From the NCBI GenBank assembly GCA_016875335.1, contig VGRO01000009.1, forward strand, positions 1 through 63,610: 63,610 nucleotides of DNA. Reading direction: 5' to 3'. Position 1 is the stretch's first letter, and each line of letters begins with the position of its first letter. The notes below the pieces were generated by a model. The model was not told the origin of the DNA. It was given only the letters and a program-made list of their open reading frames with translations, and made no database searches. The DNA is from Deltaproteobacteria bacterium (lineage in GTDB: Bacteria; Myxococcota_A; UBA9042). Both the position numbers and the translations under genes were made by a program. This document shows positions 8,106 to 60,434 of the stretch, piece by piece.

Positions 8106-9236
8106 ATGCAAGGCTTCCAGACCGGCGTCGCAGTTTCGGCGGACGTGCTGCACGGGCCCTTGCGCACCCTCGCCGGGCGCGAGGCGCAGTTGGCAGCCCG
8201 GATGCGGGTGGCCAAGGCGCTCTTGCCGGCGCCGCCCGACTCGCTGGTTCCAGCCCTGGTGTACCTGACCCAGGATCCCGATGCCGGGGTCAGGCAAGCG
8301 GCCCGCGACTCGCTGGCACAGATGCCGGGCGAAGTGTTGTTGCCGATCCTCCAGGGCTTCAAGGACCCGGCCCTGCTCGATGCCACTGGCCGCGCCTTGC
8401 ACAACGTGTCGCGCGCTGCGGTCGAGGTGGTGCTCAACAACCACACAGAGGACGACACCATCCGCTGGCTGGCCACCATGGGCGGCAGCGAAGTGTGCGA
8501 AACCATTGTGCGCAACCAGGTGCGCGCGGTCCGCTCTCCAGCGATCATCGAGGCCATCTACTTCAACCCCTCGGTGGCGCAGGGCGTCGTGCAGGCGATG
8601 CTCGAATTCGCGGTGCGCAGCAACTTGAACCTCGACCACGTCCCAGGGTTTCGCGAAATGCGGGCCGTGCTGCTCGGCGAAGTGGTGGACGACTCGGGCG
8701 GCGGCCTGTCGGACCTCAAGTTCCAGTCGGCCATGCTCATCGCGACCGGCCAGGGCGAACTGGCGGCGCAGCTGCTGGGCCAGTTGAGCGACGAACAGCG
8801 GGCGCACATCGAAGAAAAGGTGATGTCGAGCCTGGGTGCGCTCATCGCCAAGATGAGCGTGTCGCAAAAGATCCGCATCGCCATGGTCGGCGACGCCGCG
8901 ACACGCAAGATCCTGATCCGCGACCCCAAGAAAATGGTGTCGCTGGCGGTACTCAAGTCGCCGCGGTTGACCGACAGCGAAATCACCACCTTTGCCGCAA
9001 ACAAGACCTTGAGCGAGGACATCCTGGCCAACATCGCGCGCAACCGCCAGTGGACCAAGGACTATGCCACGCGCAAGGCGCTCGTGTTCAACCCCAAGTG
9101 CCCGATCACCTTCTCGCTGACCTACCTGCGCACGCTGACGCCCAAAGACATCAAGGACTGCGCCAGTTCGCGCGACGTCAATCAAACGGTCTCGCGCCAA
9201 GCCAAGCGGATGCTGGAGACCTCGCAGAAGAAGTAG
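8106..9236 (+). CDS. HEAT-like repeat protein
   Basis: This 376-residue cytoplasmic protein has no signal peptide. The first 130 residues show HEAT-like helical repeats, for example LVPALVYLTQDPDAGVRQAARDS followed by EVLLPILQGFKDPALLDA. The rest is helical with several charged, evenly spaced repeats and a basic C terminus rich in Lys, Ser and Gln. I chose the ATG at 8106 because AAGGAA lies upstream and the open frame before it is not protein-like. Such proteins are common in Myxococcota and usually act as scaffolds; the partner is unknown. The gene is flanked by two same-orientation copies of a 57-bp palindromic element. Confidence 0.75.
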   Translation: MQGFQTGVAVSADVLHGPLRTLAGREAQLAARMRVAKALLPAPPDSLVPALVYLTQDPDAGVRQAARDSLAQMPGEVLLPILQGFKDPALLDATGRALHNVSRAAVEVVLNNHTEDDTIRWLATMGGSEVCETIVRNQVRAVRSPAIIEAIYFNPSVAQGVVQAMLEFAVRSNLNLDHVPGFREMRAVLLGEVVDDSGGGLSDLKFQSAMLIATGQGELAAQLLGQLSDEQRAHIEEKVMSSLGALIAKMSVSQKIRIAMVGDAATRKILIRDPKKMVSLAVLKSPRLTDSEITTFAANKTLSEDILANIARNRQWTKDYATRKALVFNPKCPITFSLTYLRTLTPKDIKDCASSRDVNQTVSRQAKRMLETSQKK

Positions 9237-9259
9237 CGGGCGCTCCCTCGCACGGACCG

Positions 9260-9300
9260 GGACCACTGCGAATGCAGTCCCCGCGGCGCGCTGCCGCGGC
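9260..9300 (+). terminator. tandem hairpins downstream of the HEAT-like gene
   Basis: Two hairpins follow the stop at 9236. ACTGC-GAAT-GCAGT is at 9265-9278, and CCGCGGC-GCGCT-GCCGCGG is at 9281-9299. There is no T-run, so this is a GC-rich terminator candidate rather than a classic one. Confidence 0.4.
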
Positions 9301-9303
9301 AGG

Positions 9304-9383
9304 CTAGTAGGCGAAACCCCAAATTCGCGTCGGGATATGGGCCGTGATTCCTCAACAAACCCTCAATCGGTTTCGCCTACTAG
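9304..9383. repeat. 80-bp element with 15-bp terminal inverted repeats
   Basis: CTAGTAGGCGAAACC (9304-9318) is the exact complement of 9369-9383, with about 50 bases between. It starts and ends in CTAG and shares its right-hand CTAG (9380-9383) with the adjoining 57-bp element. It contains no coding capacity. Confidence 0.9.
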
Positions 9384-9436
9384 GAGCCTGGCGGCGAAAC
9401 GCCAGAATCGGCAGATTCTGGCAGACAGGCTCCTAG
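9380..9436. repeat. 57-bp palindromic element, copy 2
   Basis: This is the second copy of the element at 7951-8007, at 51 of 57 identical positions. It has CTAGGAGCCTG-type arms and an inner perfect hairpin, GCCAGAAT (9401-9408) with ATTCTGGC (9415-9422). The HEAT-like gene lies between the two copies. Confidence 0.9.
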
Positions 9437-9451
9437 CTGCTTGTTGCGTGA

Positions 9452-9470
9452 AGGGGGCTCGCAGCCCCCT
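9452..9470 (-). terminator. hairpin between convergent genes
   Basis: AGGGGGCT (9452-9459) and AGCCCCCT (9463-9470) form a perfect 8-bp stem with a 3-base loop. On the minus strand it is followed by a short TTC stretch. It probably ends transcription of the OmpA-like gene, but it could serve both strands. Confidence 0.45.
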
Positions 9471-9504
9471 CGCGCGCCCATGCGCGCTCACCCCCGCGGC
9501 CGGA

Positions 9505-9561
9505 AGTACCTCAGCCCTGTTGCGCGCCGGAACCCGGCGCGAATTTCGGGCCTGAGGTACT
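9505..9561. repeat. 57-bp palindrome ending at the OmpA-like stop codon
   Basis: AGTACCTCAG (9505-9514) is complementary to CTGAGGTACT (9552-9561), and an inner CGCGCCGG/CCGGCGCG hairpin fills the centre. The right end overlaps the stop codon of the minus-strand gene and again contains CTAG. It may act as a terminator or belong to the same class of palindromic elements. Confidence 0.75.
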
Positions 9562-10987
9562 AGGGATACACGATCTCAACCCGCGGCCCCTTGCCCTTGG
9601 CGGCGTCTGCACCCAGCGCACTGCCGGTCGCCACCAATCGCTCAGCCGCCACGCCCTTGGACATCAGGTAGTAGCGCACGGCGCCGGCCTGGCCCTGCCC
9701 CACCTTCTCGTCTTGGGCATAACCCACCAGCGTCGCCTTGACGTCGGCGTGCACTTGCAGGGCCGCGGCGAGGCCGTCGAGGTACGCCTGGGCCTTGGTC
9801 GTCAACTGCGCCGACGTGCCCTCCCACGAAATGGCAAGCGCCCCCATGAATTTCTTGAGTTTGTCCGGCACCTTGTCCGGGCAGCCGTCGCCGTCGGCAA
9901 AGCCGTTCTTGGTTTCGGCGTCGCGCGGGCACTTGTCCATGGTGTCTTCGATGCCATCGCCGTCGCTGTCCGGGCTCTGGTCGGGGCAGCCGTCTTCGTC
10001 GTCGAGGTTGTTGCGCGTCTCTTTGTCTTTGGGGCAGTTGTCGCGGCTGTCGGGGATGCCGTCGCCGTCGCTGTCGGGGTCGTCGGGGCAGCCGTCGTCG
10101 TCTTCAAAGCCGTTCTTGTTCTCGGGTACGGGCGGGCACTTGTCATGTTCGTCGTCGATGCCGTCGCCGTCCTTGTCAGCGTCGGGGCAGCCGTCGTCGT
10201 CGCGCACACCGTTCTTGGTTTCGGCGACGTCGGGGCAGCGGTCGGCGGCATCGAGCAACCCGTCGCCGTCGTTGTCCAGTTCCGGGCAGCCGTCCTCGTC
10301 TTGCCAGCCGTCGCGGTCTTCGGCGTCGAGGCGGCACTTGTCGTCGCGGTCGCTGATGCCGTCCTCGTCGCTGTCCTTGGCCTTGCCGCCGATGCGGTAA
10401 GTCACCGACAGCCACACTTCCGGCTCGATGCCGTAGGAACTGCCGCGGATCGGCACCAGCGACACATGCGCGTCCAACCGCAGCCCGAGAAACTCGTTGA
10501 GATCGAAGCGCGTGCCGGCCCCGACAAAGACATGGGCGTCGTCGTCGTCGGGTTCCGTCACATTGGGCGAGGCGGTGCTGATGCCATCCCAGCCCAGGCC
10601 GGCCCGCGCGAACGGCCGCAGCGCGCCGTCGGGGACCAGGGCAAAGGTCGCCCCGGCCCGCCAGGTGGTGATGTTGGCAGCGTCGCCAGACTGGCGCAGC
10701 TTGGACAGGGTGTAGCGGACTTCGCCCTCGGCCGTGACACGGTCGCTGAACGCGTAGCCGCCGCGCAGGCCAAAGCCGGGGCCGGCGACCGGGACCTCGT
10801 CCTTGTAGAGGGCATTGCCCAGTTCGTTGATCTCGTGCTTGAACGCCCAGCCGCCGAGCGCGCCGACCTCGATGGTGGCGGGCGGTTCGGCGCGGGCGGG
10901 CGCGGGCGACAACACGACCCAGGCGGTCCAGGCCAGGGCGCTGCTGGCGGGGGCGAACGAGCACAGGCGATGGTGCGAGGCGGGCAT
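9560..10987 (-). CDS. outer-membrane beta-barrel protein with TSP3 repeats and OmpA-like end
   Basis: This 475-residue exported protein has three parts. A signal peptide ends near residue 33 (APARA|E). A beta-barrel-like domain of about 180 residues follows, with aromatic-ending strands (for example LRGGYAFSDRV and PFARAGLGWDG). Next come about six thrombospondin type-3 calcium-binding repeats of the form DSDGDGIPDSRDNCPKD, each with paired Asp and a disulfide Cys pair. The last 90 residues resemble an OmpA C-terminal peptidoglycan-binding domain (AYLDGLAAALQVHADVKATLVGYAQD) but are somewhat short. It should tie the outer membrane to the cell wall, with the acidic repeats as a Ca-dependent linker. 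Confidence 0.85.
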   Translation of the reverse strand: MPASHHRLCSFAPASSALAWTAWVVLSPAPARAEPPATIEVGALGGWAFKHEINELGNALYKDEVPVAGPGFGLRGGYAFSDRVTAEGEVRYTLSKLRQSGDAANITTWRAGATFALVPDGALRPFARAGLGWDGISTASPNVTEPDDDDAHVFVGAGTRFDLNEFLGLRLDAHVSLVPIRGSSYGIEPEVWLSVTYRIGGKAKDSDEDGISDRDDKCRLDAEDRDGWQDEDGCPELDNDGDGLLDAADRCPDVAETKNGVRDDDGCPDADKDGDGIDDEHDKCPPVPENKNGFEDDDGCPDDPDSDGDGIPDSRDNCPKDKETRNNLDDEDGCPDQSPDSDGDGIEDTMDKCPRDAETKNGFADGDGCPDKVPDKLKKFMGALAISWEGTSAQLTTKAQAYLDGLAAALQVHADVKATLVGYAQDEKVGQGQAGAVRYYLMSKGVAAERLVATGSALGADAAKGKGPRVEIVYP

Positions 10988-11508: not shown

Positions 11509-13404
11509 ATGAGGCGCCCGCCCGCGGCCCCGGCGGTCCTTGGTCTAGGCCGGCCCGCGACGATCGTGCTCGCATGGTTGGCGCTGACCGCGGGAGGCGC
11601 TGCGCTTGACCTCGCAGGGGTGACGGGTGGCTACGAGCGCGCGGCCAGCGACCTCTGGCACCGCCTCTCTGGGCTGCGGCGCACCCCCCAGCACGTGGCA
11701 ATCGTCGGGATCGACGAAGCGTCGCTGGCCGAGAAACCCGACGAGCCGCTGGTGTTCTGGTCGCCGCACTACGCCCGGGCACTCGATGCCCTGGGCAAAG
11801 TCGGGGCCAAAGTGGTGGGCGTCGACCTGTTGCTGACCGTGAGCCCGGAGGCCTGGCTGGCGCGGGCCGGGCTCGCCCCTGGCGACGTCCGAAACTTTGA
11901 TCAGCCATTCCGCAAGGTCCTGGGCGAAGGCCGCACGGTACTGACGGCCTTCGCCACCGGCACCGAGCGCGACGCGGAGCTTCTCCTGCCCAACCGCGAC
12001 TACTGGCTGTCGCTGCCCGGCCTGCTCGACGACGTCGCCCTCGCCAACCTGGAGTACGACGACGACGGCGTGCTCCGCTCGTTCCGCATCCTGAGCGACC
12101 GCCCCGACTCGCCTCGGCGCTTTCTGGGGGCACTGCTGGCCGCCCGGGCCGCGGGTCAGGACCTGGACGCGCCGACTTGGCACCTGGGCGGCAGGGACTT
12201 GCAGGCCCAGGGGGCTCGCCACCAGGTCGCTTTTGCCGGCCCCCCCGGCACCGTACCCGTGGTGCCGATCTCGCGGCTGCTGGCCGCCAACGCCGAGCGC
12301 GATCCACAGGTTCGGGCGCTCGCTGGAAAGACTGTCCTGTTCGCCGCGACCTACCACGCCGCGCAGGACGTCCACCCAACGCCCTACGCGCCTTTGATGA
12401 TGCACGGCGCCGAGATCCACGCCCAGATCGCCGAGTCGCTGCTGACCGGTCGGCGCTTTGATGTCGCGCCGCTGTGGCTGCACGCCGCGCTGCTGGCGCT
12501 GGTGGCGGTGGCCGGGGCGCTGTTGATCTCCGGGCGGCCGGGCGTGGGCCGCGGTGCCGTCGTCACCTCCGTTGGCTTGCTGTCGACGGCCGGCCTGGCC
12601 TTTGGGTTGTGGCAGTTGGATATCGCCGTACCGATCGCCGGGATGCAGGCGGTGCTGGTGAGCGGCTTCGTCGCCGGCCTGGGCCTGGGCCTGCGCGGCA
12701 GCGAGCGCCGGCGCGAAGAGCTCAAGCGGATGTTTGGCCGCTACGTGTCCGACGAGGTCGTCGCGCACCTGCTGGGCAGCGGTCATGCCCCCGACCTGGG
12801 CGGCGAGGCCGGACAGGTTTCCGTCCTGTTCTGCGACATCCGCAACTTCACCACCATCTCCGAGCGTCTGCGGCCGCACGAAGTCGTCGACATGCTCAAC
12901 GCCTGGTTCTCGCTGGCGGCCGAGCCCATCCTGGCCCAGGGCGGGACGATCGACAAGTACATCGGCGACGCGATCATGGCTGTCTTCGGCGCTCCGGCGC
13001 CCCAGCCCGACCACGCGCGTCGCGCGCTGAAGGCGGCCGCGGAGATGGCCCGGCGGGCAGAGAAGTTCCGCGGCTGGATGGAGGAGCGTTTCGCCGGGCG
13101 CGACCTGCCCGCTTTCGGCATCGGCATTGGCATTCACAGCGGCGAGGCCGTGAGCGGCAACATCGGGTCGCCGCGGCGCATGGAATTCACCACCATTGGC
13201 GACACCGTCAACGCTGCCTCGCGCTTGGAAGGACTGACCAAGGGCATGGGGGTCGCCGTGGCCATCAGCAGCGCCACCGCCGACGCCGCCGGCAACGGCC
13301 TGCGCCTCGGTCCGCCCCAGCAAACCCAGGTCAAGGGTCGCCAAGAGGCGATGCAGGTGATGGCCTTTGAGGGATTCGACGACGAAACGGGAGGAAGGGC
13401 ATGA
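11509..13404 (+). CDS. CHASE2-domain class III adenylate cyclase
   Basis: This 631-residue membrane enzyme has one N-terminal TM segment (about 18-37), a periplasmic CHASE2 sensor domain (about 40-310), three TM segments (about 320-400) and a cytoplasmic class III cyclase domain (about 420-600). Metal-binding Asp residues are D443 (in FCDIRNF) and D487 (in YIGDAIMAVFG), and K483 is the substrate-selecting Lys. The segment FTTIGDTVNAASRLE carries the Thr, Asn and Arg expected of a Lys/Thr adenylate cyclase. It should make cAMP in response to an extracytoplasmic signal. It heads a four-gene plus-strand run and overlaps the next gene by ATGA. Confidence 0.93.
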   Translation: MRRPPAAPAVLGLGRPATIVLAWLALTAGGAALDLAGVTGGYERAASDLWHRLSGLRRTPQHVAIVGIDEASLAEKPDEPLVFWSPHYARALDALGKVGAKVVGVDLLLTVSPEAWLARAGLAPGDVRNFDQPFRKVLGEGRTVLTAFATGTERDAELLLPNRDYWLSLPGLLDDVALANLEYDDDGVLRSFRILSDRPDSPRRFLGALLAARAAGQDLDAPTWHLGGRDLQAQGARHQVAFAGPPGTVPVVPISRLLAANAERDPQVRALAGKTVLFAATYHAAQDVHPTPYAPLMMHGAEIHAQIAESLLTGRRFDVAPLWLHAALLALVAVAGALLISGRPGVGRGAVVTSVGLLSTAGLAFGLWQLDIAVPIAGMQAVLVSGFVAGLGLGLRGSERRREELKRMFGRYVSDEVVAHLLGSGHAPDLGGEAGQVSVLFCDIRNFTTISERLRPHEVVDMLNAWFSLAAEPILAQGGTIDKYIGDAIMAVFGAPAPQPDHARRALKAAAEMARRAEKFRGWMEERFAGRDLPAFGIGIGIHSGEAVSGNIGSPRRMEFTTIGDTVNAASRLEGLTKGMGVAVAISSATADAAGNGLRLGPPQQTQVKGRQEAMQVMAFEGFDDETGGRA

Positions 13405-14789
13405 ACGACACCGGGGCAACGGGCGGCCACGCTGGCCGCCGCGGCGAGCGTGGCTCGGTCCAGTGGTGGCTCTGGGGCGTGGGTGCTGGGGTCCTGTTGT
13501 GGGCGTCGCCGGTGCTGGCCCAGGTCACCGGCGGACCGGTGGGGCTGGTCACGCGCGTCACAGGCGTCGTCACCCTCGCGGTGGGCGCCGATGCCCTGCC
13601 GGCGGCGGATTTCGTGCAGGTCGTCAGCGGCGAACTGTACGTCGTGCAGGAAGGGGGACTCATCGAGCTGGTCTACTTCGGTGACGGTCGCCGGGAGCGC
13701 TGGGCCGGCCCGGCCCGAATGGTCGTTCGTCCCACGGGCGGGACGGCGCTCTCCGGGACCCCGCAGGTCAGCTTCCTGCCGGCTTCGGCGGTGGCTGCCC
13801 TCAAGAAAGTGCCACCCCGCGGCATCGCCACCGCAGAGGCCCGGGCCGGGGGCAACCGCGTGCGGGGCCTGGAGCCGGGGGCGCCCCCTGCCGCGCAACC
13901 CGCAGGGTCGCCCCCGCCACCGGCCGCGCCGTTCGACGAGAGGGCGGCCCGCGAGGCGCTGGCGCGCCACGGCGCCGATCCGGGCTCGCCAGTGCGCCCC
14001 GGCACGCAGAAGCCCCAGCCCACCGCCGGTCAGGCCGGCCAGGCGCCCGCCGGTGTCAGCCTGGCGGCCTTGAGCGCCCGCATGGAGGGACCGGCCGCGC
14101 CGGCCCTGGTGGCCGCGGCGACGAGCGCCGGGTTCGCCATGCAGCCGCCTGCGGCGCTGGCTGCCGACGCGGACGTGGTCTTTCGGGCTGCCGAGGGCGG
14201 CGCCCTGTCGGCTCGCCTCAAGGGTGGCGGCGAACTGGTGGCGGCCCGCCAGGAGGCGTGGCCCGAGCTGGTCCTGGGGGCCGCCCGCATGTGCCGCCTG
14301 CAGCGCCTGAGCCAGCCAGACCCCAGCCGCACCATTTCCGTGTCCCTGGCGGTATTCCCCCTGGAGGGCGGAGGGCCTGGATCGGTGCAGGAGCCCGTGT
14401 CGGTGCCGGTGGGTCAGCAAATGGTCATCGAGATGGTCAACGACAGTGCGCTGCCCGTGCAGATCCGCATCGTGGAGGTAGGCCCTTCTGGCAGCGTGTC
14501 GCAGGTCTTTCCTCCGGCCGACAAGGTCGAAGGCTTGCAGCCCTACGGGCGCCGCCGGCTGCCGGGCGAATTCGCCGCCGCACCTCCCCTGGGTGCGTAT
14601 GGCTACGCCTTGGTGGCGACCCGGCAGCCGCCACCCGTGCCGCCCGCAGCGGCCTCGGCCCCTGCGGCGCCACCGGCAGCGGATCCCCTCGCGGCTGTCC
14701 TGCAGTCCAAGAACCCGGCCGCCGCGCTGACCTTGGACACAGGTCTGGCGTGGGGAGTCGGCTGGTCGCGGCTGGTCATCCGGCCATAG
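13401..14789 (+). CDS. exported protein with putative DUF4384 domain
   Basis: This 462-residue protein has a hydrophobic signal at about 22-41 ending in VLAQ. A FecR-like beta segment follows (TGVVTLAVG, then LYVVQEGGLIELVYFGDG), then a long Pro/Ala/Gly-rich middle. Near residue 330 is a domain whose pattern (VSVPVGQQMVIEMVNDS, IRIVEVGPSGSVSQVFPP) resembles DUF4384. DUF4384 and FecR-like proteins often accompany CHAT and CHASE2 genes in other bacteria. It overlaps the cyclase stop by 4 bp and has a GGAGGAAGGG ribosome-binding site, so both should be made together and meet in the periplasm. Confidence 0.7.
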   Translation: MNDTGATGGHAGRRGERGSVQWWLWGVGAGVLLWASPVLAQVTGGPVGLVTRVTGVVTLAVGADALPAADFVQVVSGELYVVQEGGLIELVYFGDGRRERWAGPARMVVRPTGGTALSGTPQVSFLPASAVAALKKVPPRGIATAEARAGGNRVRGLEPGAPPAAQPAGSPPPPAAPFDERAAREALARHGADPGSPVRPGTQKPQPTAGQAGQAPAGVSLAALSARMEGPAAPALVAAATSAGFAMQPPAALAADADVVFRAAEGGALSARLKGGGELVAARQEAWPELVLGAARMCRLQRLSQPDPSRTISVSLAVFPLEGGGPGSVQEPVSVPVGQQMVIEMVNDSALPVQIRIVEVGPSGSVSQVFPPADKVEGLQPYGRRRLPGEFAAAPPLGAYGYALVATRQPPPVPPAAASAPAAPPAADPLAAVLQSKNPAAALTLDTGLAWGVGWSRLVIRP

Positions 14790-14852
14790 CAACCCGTCGT
14801 CTCTCGCGGACACGATCCTGGCGCGCTCGGCCGCGCCCACCAGGGAGGCACC

Positions 14853-15566
14853 ATGCGGCCCATCGCGAGCGATGGTCTTGCAGACGGGCACGACCCCACT
14901 GCACTGCTGACCTGGAGCCCGATTGGCCCGACTGGCGCGACGGCCAGCACGGCCCATCCCTGGCAACGCGACCGCTGGGCACGGACAACGACGTCGCCCC
15001 GGGCGCTGGCCCACGGCCGCCCCCCCACTGCGCGACGCCTCTGTGGCGCTGCGGCAGCCCTGGTGCTGTGGCTGGCCCGTCCTGGGGTGGCCCAAGGGCC
15101 CGCAGCACCCGCCGCACAGTTGCCACCCGCTACGGCAGTGGCGCCGCTCCATCCGCCTGCCGCACCAGCCCCAAGCCCCCCGCCGGTCGTCTTTCTGGGT
15201 CGCTCGGCGCGCGCACATTGGGCGGGCGGCGTCGCCCTGACCGTCCTGGGAGCCGCCGCGACCGGTGCGGCGGTCTGGCTGACCCTCGATTCCCACGCCG
15301 CGCGCGAGCAGGCGCGTGCACACTGCAGCGCCAAGCACCCCAACATCTGCAGCCCGGAGGGTGTTCGCCTCCAAGATCGGGTGCAGCGCGACAGCCTGGC
15401 CGCGCTCGGTGTGGGCGTGGCGGCTGTTCCCATGGTCGGCTTGGGTCTGCTGTCCCTGCTGGTGGCGCCCGGCAACTGGGATGCGGTCACGACCTCGGAC
15501 GCCGCGGTTCAGGTGGTACCCGTCGTGGGGCCGGCGCCTGGCCTGGCCCTGCAAGGGACCTTCTGA
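14853..15566 (+). CDS. two-TM membrane protein, unknown
   Basis: This 237-residue protein follows a strong ribosome-binding site (AGGGAGGCACC). It has a Pro/Ala-rich N-terminal half with a possible signal or TM near residues 63-80. The C-terminal half has two clear TM segments (WAGGVALTVLGAAATGAAVWL, and about 30 residues later ALGVGVAAVPMVGLGLLSLL), with a loop holding two cysteines between them. Proteins with this layout are common beside serine/threonine kinases and lipoproteins in Myxococcota. Its stop overlaps the next start (TGATG at 15564-15568). Confidence 0.65.
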   Translation: MRPIASDGLADGHDPTALLTWSPIGPTGATASTAHPWQRDRWARTTTSPRALAHGRPPTARRLCGAAAALVLWLARPGVAQGPAAPAAQLPPATAVAPLHPPAAPAPSPPPVVFLGRSARAHWAGGVALTVLGAAATGAAVWLTLDSHAAREQARAHCSAKHPNICSPEGVRLQDRVQRDSLAALGVGVAAVPMVGLGLLSLLVAPGNWDAVTTSDAAVQVVPVVGPAPGLALQGTF

Positions 15567-16504
15567 TGTGCCATCTCGCCCGGTTGGGCCGATGGTTGGT
15601 CTTGGCGGTCGTGGGGACGGCGGGGTGTGGGCTGATGGACGACCCGCCGGTCCTGGATTGCGCCTATGCCCCGCTGAGCCAGAACGAGCTGCCGCCATGG
15701 CTGGTCCAGAGCTGCGTGCTGCTGGCGTCCTGCTCGCCCTTTGGGTCCCAGAGCGTTGGCACATGCATCCGCGACGCGGTTCCGCTCAGCAGCGTGTACT
15801 TCCACTGCATCCAAGGCGCCGCCACCTGCCAGGACGTCGAGGCCTGCCAGGGTGCCGGCCGCCTGCCGGCCTCGGCCTGCGCGGACAAGCCCAAGGGCTG
15901 GCACTGCGACGGTCTGCGCGGCGTCCGCTGCGGCTTCGGCGAGCCCACCTACGTGGACTGCGCCAAGGTCGGTGGCACCTGCGCGCTCTACAAGGAGGCA
16001 GCGACGGCCGAAACCTGGCCCTGCCTGTTGAAAAAGGGGGCTTGCGCGGCGGACAAGCACTGGCGTTGCGACGGCACCCGCCAGGTCTTTTGCAGCGGGA
16101 CCGAACTTTGGGGTCAGGACTGCGCCGCCACCGGCCAGCGCTGCCTGCAAGGGAGCACCGGCGCCACGTGCTCCCCCGTCTCCTTCCCCTGCAGCCAGAA
16201 CACCTGCCAGGGCAACACCTTGCACCACTGCCCGTGGTACGGCCAGCCCTGGGGATTCCGCTACGACTGCGCCGTGGCCGGCGGCGTCTGCCAGGACGGC
16301 ATGTGTCGGCGCAAGGAGTGCGCCTACGGCGACACCCCCTGTCGCGAGAGGTGCCTGGATGGCACGCGGATGCAGACCTGCGTCGGCTCCCGCTACGCCT
16401 GGGAGGGCGGCGCCCCGCTGACCGTCGACTGTGCCGCCTACGGTTTCACTGGCTGCGCCCGGCCGGTGGTCAAGGGGGTCGAGGGGCTGCCCGTGTGTCG
16501 GTAG
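15566..16504 (+). CDS. cysteine-rich lipoprotein
   Basis: This 312-residue protein has a signal ending in TAGC (Cys21), so it is a lipoprotein. The mature part has some 40 cysteines in irregularly repeated motifs such as WHCDGLRGVRCG, HWRCDGTRQVFCSG and LHHCPWYG. Each motif looks like a small disulfide-bonded unit of 35-45 residues, of the form C-D-G-x-x-x-x-x-C. The repeats differ from the CDDGNPCT type found elsewhere in the window. It ends the plus-strand arm, and its last 67 bases overlap the 3' end of the convergent lipoprotein gene. Confidence 0.75.
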   Translation: MCHLARLGRWLVLAVVGTAGCGLMDDPPVLDCAYAPLSQNELPPWLVQSCVLLASCSPFGSQSVGTCIRDAVPLSSVYFHCIQGAATCQDVEACQGAGRLPASACADKPKGWHCDGLRGVRCGFGEPTYVDCAKVGGTCALYKEAATAETWPCLLKKGACAADKHWRCDGTRQVFCSGTELWGQDCAATGQRCLQGSTGATCSPVSFPCSQNTCQGNTLHHCPWYGQPWGFRYDCAVAGGVCQDGMCRRKECAYGDTPCRERCLDGTRMQTCVGSRYAWEGGAPLTVDCAAYGFTGCARPVVKGVEGLPVCR

Positions 16505-17235
16505 GGCCCGGCCCCTGGCCGCAGCCATCCCTCTGCCGTCTGCCCTCCGGTCCGCAATTGTACCCGAACGGACGCTGCCGGCACGCCGTCGACCACCACC
16601 CGGCCGAAGTCGTCCGTCCGCGTCACGCTGCCCTGCAGCAACACGCCCGACGCGTCCCAGATGTCGTAGGCCACCTCCGTGCCGGCGACCGGCAGGGACA
16701 CGGCGTAGGTGGTGGTTCTGACCGGCGAATGGAACAGCTCCAGGTCGACGTTGGGGTCGCGGACGTAACGGGGGGCCACCACCGATTGGGCCGGGTTGAG
16801 CAAGCCCAGCCAGAATGCCAGGGAGTTGTGCACCGTGTCCGCCTTGAGGGCCGCCGAATCCTCGAATTTGCCCATGCCGAACGGGTACATGAAGGGCGCC
16901 ACGGCCAGCGCGGCGACGCCGAAGGGGACCTCGAAGAGCTCCCACAGCGGGTTGGGGTTCCACTCGCCGCGAATCTCGATGGTGTTGTAGACGATCCGGC
17001 GCCGCAGGTCGATGTCGCGCCGGGCCAGCACGGCGAACTCGACGCGTCCCGGCCCGCGGCGCTCGGCGACCAGTCGCAGGGTCGCTGGGCCAGCGGCCTT
17101 CTCCACCTCGATGCGCTTGGCCAGGCCGCGCTCATGGACGATGATGCCGGTGCACGCGGTCATGGTCGCCGCGATGACGGTCAGCGCCACGGCGCGGCTG
17201 CCCCTGGCGGGCACGACGGCGACGCGGCGGCTCAC
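16438..17235 (-). CDS. putative lipoprotein, unknown
   Basis: This 265-residue protein starts at GTG overlapping the upstream CHAT gene stop (GTGA, 17235-17232). Its N-terminal signal ends in MTAC (Cys28). The mature protein contains a hydrophobic segment around VAALAVAPFMYPFGMG that could be a membrane-associated hairpin, and a C-terminal beta domain (VAYDIWDASGVLLQG, VVVDGVPAASVRVQLR) resembling a carboxypeptidase-regulatory or Ig-like fold. It is the last gene of a four-lipoprotein arm. The stop lies inside the convergent gene, which makes the exact C terminus slightly uncertain. Confidence 0.65.
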   Translation of the reverse strand: MSRRVAVVPARGSRAVALTVIAATMTACTGIIVHERGLAKRIEVEKAAGPATLRLVAERRGPGRVEFAVLARRDIDLRRRIVYNTIEIRGEWNPNPLWELFEVPFGVAALAVAPFMYPFGMGKFEDSAALKADTVHNSLAFWLGLLNPAQSVVAPRYVRDPNVDLELFHSPVRTTTYAVSLPVAGTEVAYDIWDASGVLLQGSVTRTDDFGRVVVDGVPAASVRVQLRTGGQTAEGWLRPGAGPYRHTGSPSTPLTTGRAQPVKP

Positions 17236-18785
17236 TTGTCCATCCCGTACAGGACGAAGGCCGCCCAGAAGAAGGGGTGTTGCCACCGCGGGTCCTTGCG
17301 GATGGCGGCCTGGGCCGCGCGCAGGGCCTCGGCGCTGCCGAGCTCCAGGAAACGATCGTAGAAACGCAGCATCAAGCGGGCCGTCGCGTCGTCGGAGACC
17401 TGCCACAGGCTGCCGATGACGGTGGGCGTGCCTCCAGCGAGAAAGGCGGCGGTGATGCTGCCCAGGGCGTCGTCCGACCCCGACAGCGTCGTTTCGCAAG
17501 CGCTCAGCACCACCAGGTGGGTGTGGGACAAGTCCATCCGGCTGATCTCGGCGGCGGTCAGGTGGCCGTCGGCGCCGGCCCCGCGGGTCAGGATCAGGCT
17601 CGACGCGCCCGCGGCGGCGGCCCCGGCGAACTGCCCGTGGGTGGCGAGGTGCAGGATGTTGAAGTTGCGGTAGGCGTCCATCACGCGGTGCTCGCTCGCG
17701 TCGTCGCCGACCAAGAGCGCCGAGTCGTCGAACATCCGCGAGACCGCGCGGGCTTCCACTTCGGCCGTGGGCAGGGGCAGCCAGGGCTCGGGGTAGCTGG
17801 CGTTGCCCACCGCCAGCATGCGCGGCGCGTCGGCGGACAGGGGGCGCTGCACGATGGCGTGGTAGAAGGTCGCGGACGGCAGGTAGGCGACGCGTGCCCC
17901 TTCGGTCAGCAACTGCCCCGCCGGGGACTCCAGCACACCAAAGGGCAGGTTGGCCAAGAAGCCATCGGGCACCACAGTCACCGCCTTGGCCCTGGCCACT
18001 TCCGGGCCCAGGGGTGCCAGCAGGGCCATCCACAGCCACCGCGAAACGCCTCGCCACGCGTCCCCCTGGGCAAGACGCAGCGCCCCCGACAGCGAGGACA
18101 CCTGCAGGCGCAAGGCTTGGGGCGGCGTCTGCAGGTGCACCAGCCGGGCGCTGGCGCGGGTGACGACAAACACATGGACCGCGTCGCCGCCCAGGTGGAA
18201 GGACAGCAAAACCTGGTCCCCGGCCAGGCCGCGCTGGATCTCCTCCAGCGTGGTGATGACCAGGTGGCCTGCCAGCGCCAGGCGGTAGGGCAGGCCGCGC
18301 TTGTCGATGGACTCGATGCGCCGGGCGACCTCCTGCTGTCCCAGCCAGAATGCTTGGTCATCGCGCTCGGCGACTTGATGGAAGGCTTCGGGCTGGCGCG
18401 GCTTGAGCCCGGCGAGCCCGCGGCTGCGCCCCCCGGGGCCGATCGGCGCGGCCTGGGCCTCGAAGCTGCGATCCAGGTCGCGGAACACCTCGGGCACCTC
18501 GTCGGCCCGACCGCGGCCGCTGCCGGCGCTGAGGCCGGCGAAGCGGCGACTCCGGGCGACCTCGAGCGCGTAGAAGGCCTGGGCGGGCCGGCCCTGGGCG
18601 ATCTCGCCTGCGATCAGGTCGGGCAGGTCGCGGCGCGCCCGTTCCAGGCGCTCGAACGGCAGCGTTGTGCCACGGCCGGTCGTCTGGATGGTGGCGCAGG
18701 CGCACAGCAAGCCGACCCCAACCAGCGCGATGACCCGCGAAGGCGCGCGAACGCAGGGGCCCGCGTGTCCAGAGGCGAGCGACAT
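17232..18785 (-). CDS. CHAT-domain (caspase-like) lipoprotein
   Basis: This 517-residue protein has an N-terminal signal with the lipobox-like LLCAC (Cys30), a helical region (about 50-200), and a C-terminal CHAT domain (about 215-517). The clan CD cysteine-peptidase dyad is intact: H383 in LHLATHGQF and C430 in VLSACETTLSG. The typical FLANLPFGVL and GTPTVIGSLWQVSDDATA segments also match CHAT. CHAT proteins are normally cytoplasmic proteases; here the signal implies action in the periplasm or at the outer membrane. The ATG follows GGAGGAGCCGTG and overlaps the upstream stop by TGATG. It sits in a four-lipoprotein operon facing the CHASE2-cyclase arm. Confidence 0.9.
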   Translation of the reverse strand: MSLASGHAGPCVRAPSRVIALVGVGLLCACATIQTTGRGTTLPFERLERARRDLPDLIAGEIAQGRPAQAFYALEVARSRRFAGLSAGSGRGRADEVPEVFRDLDRSFEAQAAPIGPGGRSRGLAGLKPRQPEAFHQVAERDDQAFWLGQQEVARRIESIDKRGLPYRLALAGHLVITTLEEIQRGLAGDQVLLSFHLGGDAVHVFVVTRASARLVHLQTPPQALRLQVSSLSGALRLAQGDAWRGVSRWLWMALLAPLGPEVARAKAVTVVPDGFLANLPFGVLESPAGQLLTEGARVAYLPSATFYHAIVQRPLSADAPRMLAVGNASYPEPWLPLPTAEVEARAVSRMFDDSALLVGDDASEHRVMDAYRNFNILHLATHGQFAGAAAAGASSLILTRGAGADGHLTAAEISRMDLSHTHLVVLSACETTLSGSDDALGSITAAFLAGGTPTVIGSLWQVSDDATARLMLRFYDRFLELGSAEALRAAQAAIRKDPRWQHPFFWAAFVLYGMDK

Positions 18786-19360
18786 CACGGCTCCTCCAGG
18801 CGGACGGTCATGTGGCGCACGACCGCGGCCGTCTCCAACGGTGCGCTGGGGTCGAAGGCGCCCGCGACCCGGCTGAGATCGAACAGCACGGCCTGGGTCC
18901 CAAAGGCCCAGTTGGGCGAGCCGGCGTGCCAGGTGGCGGTGACCAGCCCGGTGCGGCGGCTGACCTGGATTTCGACCATCGTTCCGCCGCCAACCAGCAC
19001 GGCGTTGACGCTGCCGGCGAGGACGCGGTTGAGCGCGGGCGCGACCGCCCTGGCGTCCAGATAGCCCGGACCCGGCCGGTGGCCGCCGTGACCGCCAAAC
19101 GCATAGGGCAGGGCGGGGTGAAAGAGGATGGCCTCCCAGGCGCTCGGGTGCAGGGCCCCGGACTCCGAGGCGTCTTCGTCCAGCCCGCGCGACACGCCAG
19201 CGATCGCCATCACGTTGACCTGTTGGACCTGGGCGCCCCGGCAGCCGGTGCCCGCCAGCAGCAGGACACCGAGCACCAGGTGCGCCGGGCTGTTCCAACG
19301 GACTCCGCGGAGACGCTGGCCGCGTGGCGGGGCGCAGTGCGCTGAGCGAGTTGCACTCAC
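18785..19360 (-). CDS. putative lipoprotein, unknown
   Basis: This 191-residue protein starts at GTG overlapping the upstream gene stop by GTGA (19360-19357). The frame is open further upstream, but this start gives a hydrophobic stretch at 27-39 and the lipobox AGTGC (Cys40), and it fits the overlap style of the cluster. The mature domain of about 150 residues includes ALNRVLAGSVNAVLVGGGTMVEIQVS and TGLVTATWHAGS, probably a beta sandwich. No known family is recognised. Confidence 0.65.
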   Translation of the reverse strand: MSATRSAHCAPPRGQRLRGVRWNSPAHLVLGVLLLAGTGCRGAQVQQVNVMAIAGVSRGLDEDASESGALHPSAWEAILFHPALPYAFGGHGGHRPGPGYLDARAVAPALNRVLAGSVNAVLVGGGTMVEIQVSRRTGLVTATWHAGSPNWAFGTQAVLFDLSRVAGAFDPSAPLETAAVVRHMTVRLEEP

Positions 19361-20451
19361 CGCTGCACCTGCTGGCCGCCGTCGCCCGCCAGCCGAGATA
19401 CGACTTCTCTTGCAAATTTGCGCACATGGGGTGGCAGATCGCCCTTCGCCGTGGCTGCGGGCGCCATCCAGTGGGCATCCCCCTCTGCGCACAGCAGGGG
19501 CTCCGGCTTCGGCCATGCGTCCATCCACTTCGGTGCAAGGGCGAGCGCGACAGCGGCCCCCACAGCCAGCCCCAGGCTTGCGCTCAGGACCACCGGCTTG
19601 TCGGCGTACCAGCCGCCCACCACTCCGCCCACTGCCGCCATCAGCCCGGCATAGGCGGGCGCCCCCGTCGCTGCGATGCGTGGGCGCACCCGCACGCCGT
19701 GTTCAGCGCGAAAGACGCCGTCTGCCCCTTCCCACTGCGACAGCGTGCGCGAGAGCTGCCAGTCTGGCGCTCCGGTCGCGGGGTCCAGGGCCTCGGCCAA
19801 GAGGCGGGTTGCCGCCAGGGGAAGGCCCGACAGCGCGTCGAAGCGGGCGGCGCAGCGCTGGTGTATGACCTCTGGGTTGGCGACCATCAGGTCGCCCTCG
19901 GCGGGTTGGGGCGCGACGGTCCGCAGCGTCCAGCGGGTCCGCCCTGCGACCAACTGCCGGCCGGGTTGAAGGGGGGCGTCGACCTCCCGCAGCCGGATCA
20001 CCAGATCCGCACCACTGCGCCGTGCGGCCGCCGTTGGGTCGGACTGGCCTACCCACGAGCGCCATCCCAAGACCCTGAACCCCCGGCCGATCGCCCGCGT
20101 TTCCAGTTCGGACATGAGTTGGCCACAGGGCAACGCCAGCAGGGCCGTCTCGCCCGAAGCTGCGGCCGGGGACGTCGAGCACGGCTCGGGCGCCACGATG
20201 GCCAGCACGGCTGCGCTCCGCCACCGCGCCTCGGCGCCGGGCCTTTGCGCCTCCTCTACCAAGCTGACCACCGGCGCATGGGCGCGCTCGGCCCGCAGGT
20301 AGCCCGGCGCTCCGTAGTGGTGGCAGGCCGACAGGGCCAGAGCGGCGGCCAGCGTCGTCAGCGGACCAGCCAGGGGCGAGACGGCCGGCCCGCAGCCGCG
20401 CGCGGCCCACCGCGGGACTCTTGCCCGGGGCGCGGGAGCGACGCGCTTCAT
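19357..20451 (-). CDS. lipoprotein with embedded hydrophobic hairpin
   Basis: This 364-residue protein has a long basic N terminus and a signal ending in ALSAC (Cys43). The mature part includes ELETRAIGRGFRVLGW and SGADLVIRLREVD, a pattern seen in CsgG-like and other outer-membrane lipoproteins that bind or assemble at the membrane. It also has a hydrophobic hairpin near residues 275-310 (GLMAAVGGVVGGWYAD, then VVLSASLGLAVGAAVALALAP) that could insert into a membrane. It is the first gene of the minus arm that includes the CHAT lipoprotein. Confidence 0.65.
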   Translation of the reverse strand: MKRVAPAPRARVPRWAARGCGPAVSPLAGPLTTLAAALALSACHHYGAPGYLRAERAHAPVVSLVEEAQRPGAEARWRSAAVLAIVAPEPCSTSPAAASGETALLALPCGQLMSELETRAIGRGFRVLGWRSWVGQSDPTAAARRSGADLVIRLREVDAPLQPGRQLVAGRTRWTLRTVAPQPAEGDLMVANPEVIHQRCAARFDALSGLPLAATRLLAEALDPATGAPDWQLSRTLSQWEGADGVFRAEHGVRVRPRIAATGAPAYAGLMAAVGGVVGGWYADKPVVLSASLGLAVGAAVALALAPKWMDAWPKPEPLLCAEGDAHWMAPAATAKGDLPPHVRKFAREVVSRLAGDGGQQVQR

Positions 20452-20603: not shown

Positions 20604-22451
20604 TCACGGCGTCGTGGAGCACGATGCAGTGGTGCCGGTGCTGCTCACCTGGCAGTACTGGGTGGACGAGCACTTCTTGTAGGTCTGCTGCGGCGACCAG
20701 TAGAGGTAGGTTGCGGACGTCGAGCACGAGGTAGAGGAGCCCGTACAGCCGCCAAACGCCTCGGAGAGGTAGATTGTCGCGCCCTTGCTGGCGCTGCTGC
20801 AGGTGTAGAGCTTCTTGGTTGCGAAGGTGCCGCACTTGGTGCCTTTGGCGGCGTATTGGCCGTCGGGGCAGCAGGTCGAGCCCGGCGTGCACTTGTCGCC
20901 GCTGACGCAGTTGCCCGGTGTTTGCGGCGAGGTCACCTGGCACTTCTGTGTCGTTGGGCAGGTCTTGTAGACCTCCGATTGTGCCACGGCGTAGGTCGAG
21001 CTCGACGAGCACAGCGTCGACGTCCCCGCGCATCCCGGCAGCTTGTAGGTCTTGAGCACGTCGCTGCCGTTGCCGCCGCCGCTGCACACGTAGCTCACGC
21101 TGGTCTTGAGCGTGCCGCAGACGGTGCCTTTGGGCGCAAACTGGCCGGCGGCGGTACAGCACGTTGTGCCCGGGGTGCACTTGTCACTGTTGCAGGGCCC
21201 GCAATCGCCCGCGCAGCTCTGGCACGACTCGCCGTCGCCGCAGGTGCCGTCGCCGCAGGCAGAGGTGGTGGAACTGCACACGTTGTCCACGCAGGCGTCG
21301 GTGGTCACCGGGTTGTTGTCGTCGCAGTCGAGGTCGGTGATGCAGCAATCGTTCTTGGGCGTGTTGACGCACTCGCCACCCTTGCACTCGTCGGCGGTGC
21401 ACGGGCTGGAGTCGTCGCAGTCCGTCGCCGTTTTGCAGCAATTGGAGCCAGGCTGATGATCGCAGGTGCCGTTCTGGCAGGTGTCGATGGTGCACGCCTT
21501 GCCGTCGTCGCACTGCTTGTCGGTCACGCAGCAGCCGTCGCCCGCCGGTTGGTGCTGGCATTGGTACTTCTCGCAGCTGTCGAGCGTACACGGGACGCCA
21601 TCGTCGCACGCGCTGACGTCGGCGCAGCAGCCGGCCGAACTCGCACCCTTGAACTGGCAGGTGCCCTTGTCGCAGGTGTCGACGCTGCACGGGTTGTCGT
21701 CACTGCAGGCGGCGTCGGCCATGCAACAGCCCAGCTTGGCCTTGTTTTCGCATGCGCCCGACACGCAGACATCGGTCGTGCAGGTATTGCTGTCGTCGCA
21801 GTCGGCGTTGACCTTGCACTTGCTGATGGCCTTGAAGATACAGTGGTATTCCACGCATTTGCCGCTGGTGGCGCCGCTCGGATCGGCGCACTCGCCGTCG
21901 GCTGCACAGCAGGTGGGGTCAGCATTGTTGGGGTTGACGAACTTGGCGTAGGTGCACAGACCACTTTTGCAGATGTTGGCGGTGCAGGCATTGCTGTCGT
22001 CGCAGTCGCCGGTCTTGGTGCAACTGCAGGCCGGCTCTGACTTGATCGGGTGGTAGCAATAGCCGTTGACACACTTGTCGAGCGAGCACGCCTTGTTGTC
22101 GTCGCAGTCCTGGTCGAGCTTGCACGCGCTGCCCGCTGGCGCGCTGCCAACCCCTTCGCCGACCGCGCCACCTCCGTCCTGGGGCGTCGTCGCCGGGTTC
22201 GCTTCGGATTCGCTGGCGGCATCGGCTGTCGTCGGCCCGGTTGCGTCCCCGCCGCTGATGGCGTCTTTGCCAGGAGTCACCTCAGGTGCACAATTGCCGT
22301 CGATGCAGTCCTGCCCGACGGGGCAGTCGCCGGCCACCGCGCAGAAAATCGCCGGCCCAGGCGACGACGCGTTGCTGTTGTTGCCGGATCTGCCCACGCA
22401 GGCCGCAGTCCCGGCAGACAGGATCGACACCACGAGGACTCGCTGGATCAT
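20604..22451 (-). CDS. cysteine-rich repeat lipoprotein
   Basis: This 615-residue protein has a signal ending in GTAAC (Cys18). After a Gly/Asn/Ser and Ala-rich linker come about ten disulfide-type units whose core is CDDSxxCTxDxCxxGxC, several preceded by a CC pair (for example GCCADVSACDDGVPCTLDSC). The C-terminal 200 residues contain two copies of another Cys module starting DKCTPGTTCC and DKCTPGSTCC, about 80 residues apart. The second of two adjacent ATGs (22451) is six bases from GGAG. Related repeats occur in surface proteins of Myxococcota; the ligand is unknown. A TTGACA promoter lies upstream. Confidence 0.8.
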   Translation of the reverse strand: MIQRVLVVSILSAGTAACVGRSGNNSNASSPGPAIFCAVAGDCPVGQDCIDGNCAPEVTPGKDAISGGDATGPTTADAASESEANPATTPQDGGGAVGEGVGSAPAGSACKLDQDCDDNKACSLDKCVNGYCYHPIKSEPACSCTKTGDCDDSNACTANICKSGLCTYAKFVNPNNADPTCCAADGECADPSGATSGKCVEYHCIFKAISKCKVNADCDDSNTCTTDVCVSGACENKAKLGCCMADAACSDDNPCSVDTCDKGTCQFKGASSAGCCADVSACDDGVPCTLDSCEKYQCQHQPAGDGCCVTDKQCDDGKACTIDTCQNGTCDHQPGSNCCKTATDCDDSSPCTADECKGGECVNTPKNDCCITDLDCDDNNPVTTDACVDNVCSSTTSACGDGTCGDGESCQSCAGDCGPCNSDKCTPGTTCCTAAGQFAPKGTVCGTLKTSVSYVCSGGGNGSDVLKTYKLPGCAGTSTLCSSSSTYAVAQSEVYKTCPTTQKCQVTSPQTPGNCVSGDKCTPGSTCCPDGQYAAKGTKCGTFATKKLYTCSSASKGATIYLSEAFGGCTGSSTSCSTSATYLYWSPQQTYKKCSSTQYCQVSSTGTTASCSTTP

Positions 22452-22613
22452 CATCGGCTCCGGGTCCACGGACAGTGCGCAAGCCAACCGCACAGGTGAA
22501 ATGGAAGCGGAGGGCAACAGCAAGGGGGCACTCTGCCCCGAGCCATCGCCAGCCAAGCGCGACCCTTGCGCCGACGGCGCCCCGCCAGACCCTTCGGCGG
22601 CCGCGCGACCGTC

Positions 22614-46006: not shown

Positions 46007-46722
46007 ATGAGGGCGCTCCGGGCCAATACCCCATGGATCGTCGTCACCGCGACCTGCCTTGTCGCCTGCAGCTCCCCACCGGTCAGCTCTGCGCCCGCCG
46101 CCTCCCGCCCCAAAACCTGAACCCACGCTGTGGGCGGGCGGCCACGTCACCAAGATCCTCGCCGCCGACCGCGTGGTGTTCAGCCGCGGCAGCGACGACG
46201 GCATCGCGCTCGGCCGCGACGACCTGACGCTGCACCCGCTGTTGCCCAGCGACGACGGCAAGAACCAGTACCTCGAAACCGACATCCGCATTGCGCGCGG
46301 CAAGGTCGTCGAACTGCGGCCGACCGTCGAGGTCTTGTCGAGGTCCGGCAGCGACGCGGCGCGCGGAGAGCCTGGACGGCAAGACCGACCTGGTGGTGTT
46401 GAGCGCCTGCGAGACGGCGCTGCAGATGGGCAAATCGGCGGGAGAAGAGCTCATCAGCGTCGCCAGTGCCTTCGCCAACGCGGGCGCGCCGAGCCTGGTG
46501 GCATCGCTGTGGGAGGTGGACGACGAGGCAACCGCTGAGCTGATGACCGAGTTCTATCGGCTGATCAAGGCGGGCAAGGACAAGGAAGGAAGGCCGTTGG
46601 ATACACTCGAAGCCTTGCGCCAAGCGCAGTTGCACGTGATGCACCTGAACCGGGCCGGCGCCACGCCGTTTGCGGATCCGGCGTATTGGGCCGGATTCCA
46701 GCTCATCGGCGAGTATCGGTAG
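46007..46722 (+). pseudogene. frameshifted remnant of a CHAT-domain lipoprotein gene
   Basis: Three frames carry pieces of one gene. Codons from ATG 46007 give a 37-residue lipoprotein-type leader (VVTATCLVACSSPPVSS) that ends at TGA 46118-46120. The next frame continues GGHVTKILAADRVVFSRGSDDGIAL to about 46350. The third frame then gives a CHAT C terminus (LDGKTDLVVLSACETALQMG, then LVASLWEVDDEATAELM, ending at 46722). The His motif and the first part of the CHAT domain are missing. Sequencing error could explain a frameshift, but the missing half favours decay. Confidence 0.75.
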
Positions 46723-60242: not shown

Positions 60243-60326
60243 CGGCAGGGCTCCGAGCGGGAGGGCAGGCGTGCGGCGGCGGGGCCGGCAGGGGCCGCGC
60301 GGACAACACCGCGACGCAAGGCCCGT

Positions 60327-60354
60327 ATTGTACGGCCAACCGGGTACGGGTCAA
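60327..60354 (-). promoter_or_regulatory. sigma70-type promoter of the giant lipoprotein gene
   Basis: On the minus strand TTGACC (60354-60349) and TACAAT (60332-60327) are separated by 16 bases. This is the best promoter match in the window. Transcription would start near 60320, giving a 5' UTR of about 78 bases before the ATG at 60242. Confidence 0.65.
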
Positions 60355-60355
60355 G

Positions 60356-60374
60356 GCAATGACGCATTGCGTCA
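60356..60374. promoter_or_regulatory. two overlapping palindromes abutting the -35
   Basis: GCAATG-ACG-CATTGC (60356-60370) and TGACGCA-T-TGCGTCA (60360-60374) overlap and end one base from the -35 of the promoter above. Such a position suits an activator-binding site. Confidence 0.5.
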
Positions 60375-60434
60375 GCCGGGCTTGGCCGCCAGCGATCGAC
60401 GTGCGAGGCCCATCGCAGTGGGCCGAGGGGCGCC

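What the first reader, a model, noticed from the sequence alone, without database searches (positions are those of the whole stretch)
11509..20451. Convergent CHASE2-cyclase / CHAT-lipoprotein envelope cluster
Eight genes in two facing arms all encode membrane or envelope proteins. One arm has a CHASE2 adenylate cyclase, a DUF4384-like exported protein, a two-TM protein and a Cys-rich lipoprotein. The other has four lipoproteins including a CHAT protein with intact H383 and C430. Every junction within the lipoprotein arm overlaps (GTGA or TGATG). Known: CHASE2, DUF4384/FecR-like and CHAT genes often neighbour each other. Inference: an outer sensor drives cAMP production while a caspase-like enzyme works outside the cytoplasm, possibly a stress or self-recognition response.
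Basis: partly seen in the sequence, partly recalled or inferred. Interest (0 to 1): 0.82.

Follow-up and report, generated by a model that had tools for sequence, protein, structure and literature searches.

The report
CHASE2-cyclase and CHAT-lipoprotein operon pair
In an uncultured myxobacterial genome, a membrane cAMP-making sensor and a set of lipoproteins that includes a caspase-like protease are encoded in two neighbouring operons, and the same two operons recur rearranged but still adjacent in a related genus, which suggests (but does not prove) that they work together at the cell envelope.

Summary
The eight ORFs, their coordinates, the stop/start overlaps and the intact CHAT dyad (H383, C430) are all real. 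CHASE2, class III cyclase and CHAT are solid family hits; DUF4384 is only a sub-threshold match, and the "two-TM" ORF (TM2) is the weakest gene call. In the 52 class genomes searched, the distinctive arm B lipoproteins (LPb1, LPb4) occur in only one other genome, G009, a different genus of the same family. There LPb1 lies 230 bp from the same CHASE2-cyclase plus DUF4384-like pair, but the arms are divergent, not convergent, and TM2 and CysLP are not on those contigs. A congener, G014, keeps only a decayed arm A and has no detectable LPb1 or LPb4. A third Myxococcota genome, G284, has CHAT-lipoprotein plus LPb4 without arm A. So the conserved unit is about five genes (CHASE2-cyclase, DUF4384-like; LPb1, CHAT, LPb4), not eight, and arm B can stand alone. 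LPb1 models as a PelC/GNA1162-type outer-membrane lipoprotein fold. Lipoprotein CHATs occur in several phyla, and exported partners of CHASE2 receptors are known. Best reading: an envelope-sensing locus in which a periplasmic CHAT module and a CHASE2 adenylate cyclase act in one pathway. The coupling is inferred. New variant of a known kind, moderate interest.

The parts
11509..13404 (+). CHASE2 receptor-type class III adenylate cyclase, 631 aa: N-terminal TM, extracytoplasmic CHASE2 (30-337), further TMs, cytoplasmic cyclase (434-616)
   Evidence: Pfam CHASE2 1.5e-30, Guanylate_cyc 1.8e-23; metal Asp (D443, D487), Lys483, N568 and R572 present; best PDB hits are adenylate cyclases; 60-61% identical homologue in G009
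13401..14789 (+). exported protein with DUF4384-like C-terminal region, 462 aa
   Evidence: ATGA overlap with the cyclase gene; DUF4384 E 0.023, sub-threshold, on the C-terminal fragment; homologue in the same position behind the cyclase in G009 and a remnant in G014
14853..15566 (+). TM2: putative exported or membrane protein; start uncertain (coding-model start 15138)
   Evidence: low coding score; no family; no homologue on the G009 contigs
15566..16504 (+). CysLP: Cys-rich lipoprotein
   Evidence: TGATG junction; lipobox TAGC; no family; not found on the G009 contigs
16438..17235 (-). LPb4: lipoprotein, constant downstream partner of the CHAT lipoprotein
   Evidence: GTGA overlap with CHAT; homologues directly behind CHAT in G009 and G284; no confident fold
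17232..18785 (-). CHAT lipoprotein, 517 aa, TPR-free, H383/C430 intact
   Evidence: Pfam CHAT 1e-65; dyad invariant with G009 and G284 homologues
18785..19360 (-). LPb2: small putative lipoprotein
   Evidence: GTGA and TGATG junctions; only unproven similarity (E 0.036, single pairwise comparison) to the lipoprotein preceding CHAT in G284
19357..20451 (-). LPb1: lipoprotein of the PelC/GNA1162/CsgG-type fold, first gene of arm B
   Evidence: 39%-identical homologue next to the CHASE2-cyclase in G009; family in 9 further Myxococcota genomes; model matches PelC, E 1.7e-4, probability 1.0

Best explanation
Two co-selected operons form an envelope signalling unit. Arm B makes periplasm-facing lipoproteins: LPb1, a PelC/GNA1162-fold protein probably at the outer membrane; a CHAT caspase-like protease; LPb4, which always follows the CHAT gene; and LPb2. 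Arm A makes a CHASE2 adenylate cyclase in the inner membrane and an exported DUF4384-like protein. Most likely mechanism: an envelope or surface cue acts on the lipoprotein assembly; the CHAT protease, or its conformational state, processes a periplasmic partner (LPb4 or the DUF4384-like protein are the first candidates); the changed partner is read by the CHASE2 ectodomain and alters cAMP output. Shown: gene content, recurrence and adjacency in a second genus, intact active-site residues in both enzymes, export signals, and the fold class of LPb1 (modest model). Inferred: outer-membrane location, protease activity, substrate, direction of signalling, and the functional link itself.
For: LPb1 and LPb4 occur in exactly 2 of 52 class genomes, both of which also carry the intact close CHASE2-cyclase subfamily and P0003 homologue. 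In G009, LPb1 and the cyclase lie 230 bp apart in opposite order to the window, so adjacency survived a rearrangement; flanking genes differ (window: eno/xthA-like and nuo; G009: OYE-like and aro/trp). In G014, arm A is a wreck (CHASE2 residues about 152-272 and the whole cyclase domain gone, one stop) and no LPb1 or LPb4 is detectable. CHAT-LPb4 coupling is kept in 3 genomes. A second CHASE2-cyclase plus exported-lipoprotein operon lies divergent from an exported TPR-CHAT in the same genome and 2 congeners; 5 CHASE2/CHAT pairs within 10 kb against 0.43 expected, although 3 are the same locus. Precedent: S. meliloti CHASE2 cyclases respond to a protein ligand through the outer-membrane protein NsrA (PMC13001267); a metacaspase-CHASE2 fusion is reported (PMC3501461).
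Against: Only one other genome has both arms, and its CHAT-LPb4 pair sits on a separate 3.2-kb contig, so only LPb1-cyclase adjacency is shown there. G284 has CHAT-LPb4 without this cyclase. Most LPb1 relatives have no CHAT in the fetched stretch. Window and G009 are one family, so shared descent could explain co-occurrence. cAMP is made in the cytoplasm while CHAT is predicted outside it, so any coupling must cross the inner membrane through CHASE2; no direct evidence for this.
Confidence: 0.42

Rival explanations
1. The arms are functionally separate envelope operons that sit together by shared descent or passive linkage; arm B is a stand-alone CHAT-lipoprotein cassette and arm A an ordinary CHASE2 cyclase with its exported partner.
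For: G284 has CHAT-LP plus LPb4 without arm A; LPb1-family genes are widespread, mostly without CHAT nearby; CHASE2 receptors with exported FecR partners exist without CHAT (PMC5192318); CHASE2 lies near CHAT in only 2 of 79 loci elsewhere.
Against: Adjacency persists after a swap of arm order, in different chromosomal surroundings, in G009; the arms are rare yet occur together, and G014 has lost arm B and has a decayed arm A.
Confidence: 0.38
2. A conflict or defence device (self-recognition, phage or predator response) in which CHAT is the killing effector and the cyclase an alarm.
For: CHAT proteases act in defence (Craspase, PMC9729208); the cyclase domain resembles Pycsar cyclases in PADLOC (3.8e-28), as most class III cyclases would; patchy distribution.
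Against: No defence family other than generic cyclase and weak CHAT matches; CHAT is predicted to be exported, so it cannot be fired directly by cytoplasmic cAMP; no immunity gene or mobile-element hallmark recognised at the window locus; chromosomal setting between housekeeping genes.
Confidence: 0.1
3. The CHAT lipoprotein is an envelope-maintenance protease of the LPb1/LPb4 lipoprotein complex (assembly or export of an outer-membrane polymer), and the cyclase merely co-regulates it.
For: LPb1 models as PelC/GNA1162/LpoB/CsgG-type fold, a class that serves outer-membrane export or peptidoglycan synthesis (PMC12141448 for PelC); lipoprotein CHATs occur in several phyla without CHASE2 nearby.
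Against: No polymer synthesis or export genes were recognised in the neighbourhood; the LPb1 model is modest (mean pLDDT 66.5, TM-score about 0.5 by target).
Confidence: 0.1

Closest known systems
CHASE2-domain adenylate cyclases CyaD1/CyaD2/CyaK with outer-membrane NsrA, Sinorhizobium meliloti (PMC13001267)
   Same: CHASE2 plus class III cyclase; signal enters through an outer-membrane component; output cAMP
   Different: no CHAT protease is mentioned in the passages read; NsrA is a beta-barrel, whereas here the candidate outer components are lipoproteins; no Clr-like regulator was looked for
BiofilmReg operon, Burkholderia: LysM-FecR exported protein plus CHASE2 histidine kinase (PMC5192318)
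   Same: exported partner gene adjoining a CHASE2 receptor gene
   Different: output is a histidine kinase; the partner is FecR/LysM, not DUF4384-like; no CHAT
Metacaspase-CHASE2 fusion of Trichodesmium erythraeum (PMC3501461)
   Same: clan CD protease linked with a CHASE2 receptor
   Different: one polypeptide with the protease in the cytoplasm; here separate genes, CHAT instead of metacaspase, protease predicted in the periplasm
TPR-CHAT/Csx29 of Craspase (PMC9729208)
   Same: CHAT caspase-like domain with His/Cys dyad; NCBIfam Csx29 sub-threshold match 7.2e-9
   Different: no TPR found, a lipoprotein signal, no CRISPR context
PelC / GNA1162 / LpoB / CsgG-type lipoproteins
   Same: alpha/beta core of the LPb1 model; Foldseek against PelC E 1.7e-4
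   Different: LPb1 is larger with a C-terminal helical region; no sequence family match; no pel, curli or PBP genes recognised nearby

Membership tests
CHASE2 receptor-type adenylate cyclase | CHASE2 domain above the curated cut-off between N-terminal and downstream TM helices | tested here: met
   PF05226 107.1 bits against 26.3
CHASE2 receptor-type adenylate cyclase | class III catalytic domain with metal, adenine-selecting and transition-state residues | tested here: met
   PF00211 83.5 bits; D443, D487, K483, N568, R572 read from the sequence and the PDB alignment; activity not tested
CHAT peptidase (caspase/separase-like) | CHAT domain above cut-off with His-Cys dyad | tested here: met
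   222.5 bits; H383 and C430 invariant in 3 homologues
TPR-CHAT | N-terminal TPR repeats | tested here: not met
   no TPR hit in P0007 at E<=1, whereas the second CHAT of the same genome has 11 TPR_12 stretches
DUF4384 proteins | DUF4384 domain above the gathering score | tested here: inconclusive
   15.2 bits against 27, spanning profile 4-81 of 81, on the isolated C-terminal part only; none for the whole protein
CHASE2-FecR operon | recognisable FecR domain in the partner protein | tested here: not met
   no FecR hit; hhalign against a four-sequence FecR profile E 0.85
PelC/GNA1162/CsgG-type lipoprotein | fold match | tested here: inconclusive
   Foldseek E 1.7e-4, probability 1.0, TM by target about 0.5; model pLDDT 66.5
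Outer-membrane lipoprotein | lipidation and Lol sorting | not testable with these tools
   lipobox motif only; simple signal rule

The most novel reading that the evidence does not exclude
An envelope proteolysis-to-cAMP relay: an exported, lipid-anchored caspase-like (CHAT) protease with a PelC-fold lipoprotein gates a CHASE2 adenylate cyclase by cleaving or releasing a periplasmic partner, a two-operon system kept together through rearrangement in Myxococcota.
Probability: 0.22. Interest if true: 0.75.

Novelty: new variant of a known kind. Interest (0 to 1): 0.46.

Why it matters
What CHASE2 domains sense is largely unknown, and CHAT proteins are usually discussed as cytoplasmic or CRISPR effectors. 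A conserved pairing of a CHASE2 cyclase with a lipid-anchored CHAT protease and a PelC-fold lipoprotein gives a concrete candidate input chain for a CHASE2 receptor and a candidate extracytoplasmic role for a caspase-like protease. Both can be tested with cAMP and localisation assays.

Tried and rejected
FecR identity of P0003: my own first impression, rejected by Pfam and hhalign. LPb2 homology to the lipoproteins beside CHAT in G009 and G284: E 0.54 and 0.036 with P0008, unproven. LPb4 fold: model too poor (pLDDT 58, no match at E<=0.001). General CHAT-CHASE2 linkage across bacteria: not seen. RNA elements: none. Promoter and terminator scans: at chance level for terminators, uninformative. 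Defence system: PADLOC gives only generic cyclase and weak CHAT hits. PDB sequence search with CHAT: no hit at E<=0.1. The genome-contig scan returned mostly generic TPR-CHAT loci; its first hit is G009's own contig (CALGHC010000190.1, uncultured Myxococcales bacterium). Papers holding both CHASE2 and "CHAT domain": none in the open library. Limits: phylum searches sampled 379 genomes and scored only 3-5 candidates each, so absences are soft.

Full report
OBSERVATION. All eight ORFs exist where stated. Arm A (+): CHASE2-cyclase 11509-13404, DUF4384-like 13401-14789, TM2 14853-15566, Cys-rich lipoprotein 15566-16504. Arm B (-): LPb1 20451-19357, LPb2 19360-18785, CHAT 18785-17232, LPb4 17235-16438. 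Arm B junctions are GTGA, TGATG and GTGA; in arm A the junctions are ATGA, a 63-bp gap and TGATG; the arms overlap by 67 bp at their 3' ends. CHAT H383 and C430 are present. A codon-usage model supports all eight reading frames, TM2 least (score 17, with a later start at 15138). The locus is chromosomal, between an OmpA/TSP3-like gene and a nuo operon. Pfam recognises only CHASE2, Guanylate_cyc and CHAT. The DUF4384 label rests on a sub-threshold but full-length match of one fragment (E 0.023).

WHAT RECURS. Relatives were searched as whole genomes. LPb4 and LPb1 each occur in 2 of 52 genomes of the class: the window's genome and G009, another genus of the same family. G009 also holds a cyclase 60-61% identical to the window's and a 39%-identical P0003 homologue. 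On G009 contig C549 the order is LPb1(-), CHASE2-cyclase(+), P0003 homologue(+), with 230 bp between the divergent starts; next come an OYE-like gene and aro/trp genes. CHAT and LPb4 of G009 lie together on the 3,218-bp contig C190. Each arm keeps its strand but the sides are exchanged, so the window is tail-to-tail and G009 head-to-head. Simple inversion of the whole locus cannot do this, so adjacency has survived a rearrangement, in different chromosomal surroundings. TM2, CysLP and LPb2 have no detectable homologue on the two G009 contigs. In the congener G014 a single contig keeps an arm A wreck: CHASE2 residues about 24-152 and 273-431 joined, the cyclase catalytic domain gone, fused into the P0003-like gene, with a stop; LPb1 and LPb4 were not found in that 92%-complete genome.

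ARM B ELSEWHERE. In a sample of 379 genomes of the phylum, G284 (another family) has a lipoprotein, a CHAT lipoprotein (7e-92) and LPb4 (3e-33) in a row, without the arm A cyclase; its best cyclase matches cover only the catalytic domain. The three CHAT lipoproteins share the dyad. LPb1 relatives (E 1e-14 to 4e-6) occur in nine more genomes, mostly without CHAT in the fetched stretch; one, in G241, is divergent from an exported caspase-domain protein (Peptidase_C14 3.9e-39). An AlphaFold model of LPb1 (10 sequences, mean pLDDT 66.5) matches PelC (E 1.7e-4, probability 1.0) and, more weakly, GNA1162, LpoB and CsgG: a periplasmic outer-membrane lipoprotein fold. The LPb4 model is too poor to interpret.

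CHASE2 AND CHAT IN GENERAL. In the 52 genomes, CHASE2 and CHAT hits lie within 10 kb five times against 0.43 expected. Three of the five are one locus of the window's genus: a CHASE2-cyclase with an exported lipoprotein gene, divergent from a roughly 1,100-aa TPR-CHAT, with a signal sequence where the start is clear. So there are two or three independent cases, and P is about 0.01-0.07. Across 79 CHAT loci from other organisms, only two (both Ignavibacteria) have CHASE2 within the fetched flanks. The pairing is therefore a feature of this lineage, not a rule. Lipoprotein CHATs are not unusual: 11 of 69 CHAT genes in those loci have a signal plus lipobox, against 29 of 791 other genes.

MECHANISM. 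The cyclase has all catalytic residues and a CHASE2 ectodomain in the periplasm. The CHAT, LPb1, LPb2 and LPb4 proteins carry lipoprotein-like signals, and the DUF4384-like protein an export signal. CHAT therefore cannot be a direct effector of cytoplasmic cAMP. If the arms talk, information flows through the CHASE2 ectodomain, most simply from the lipoproteins inwards. Precedents: S. meliloti CHASE2 cyclases are activated by a protein ligand through the outer-membrane protein NsrA (PMC13001267); CHASE2 kinases pair with exported FecR/LysM proteins (PMC5192318; FecR in 4 of 19 upstream genes here); and one metacaspase-CHASE2 fusion exists (PMC3501461). Protease activity, substrates, outer-membrane location and the functional link are inferences.

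VERDICT. A real, rare, partly conserved two-operon locus. New variant of known kinds; interest moderate because only two genomes carry both arms and the coupling is untested.

Noticed in passing
window 46366-46722: C-terminal fragment of a second CHAT gene (PF12770 positions 184-289, E 2.3e-29) shortly behind a short lipoprotein-like start; looks like a decayed CHAT gene.
   Followed up: partly
L180 (same genome, contig C149) 7334-14458; L183 and L182 in congeners: A second CHASE2-cyclase locus (in L180 and L183 followed by an exported lipoprotein-like gene), divergent from a roughly 1,100-aa TPR-CHAT, conserved in three genomes of the genus.
   Followed up: partly
L090 2440-5419 (G241): LPb1-family gene and a second lipoprotein, divergent from an exported caspase-domain (Peptidase_C14) protein: a different clan CD protease beside the same lipoprotein family.
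   Followed up: partly
L075 5724-7427 (G014): Remnant of arm A with CHASE2 and cyclase deletions fused to the P0003-like gene, about 1.8 kb from a reverse-transcriptase-like ORF (9191-10144) that resembles group II intron enzymes by eye.
   Followed up: partly
L007 right end (G009 C190): Short tandem repeat just upstream of the CHAT gene, at the contig end; probably the cause of the assembly break.
   Followed up: no
window 20604-22454 and 55869-62990: Large Cys-rich or repetitive secreted lipoprotein-like genes flank and follow the region.
   Followed up: no
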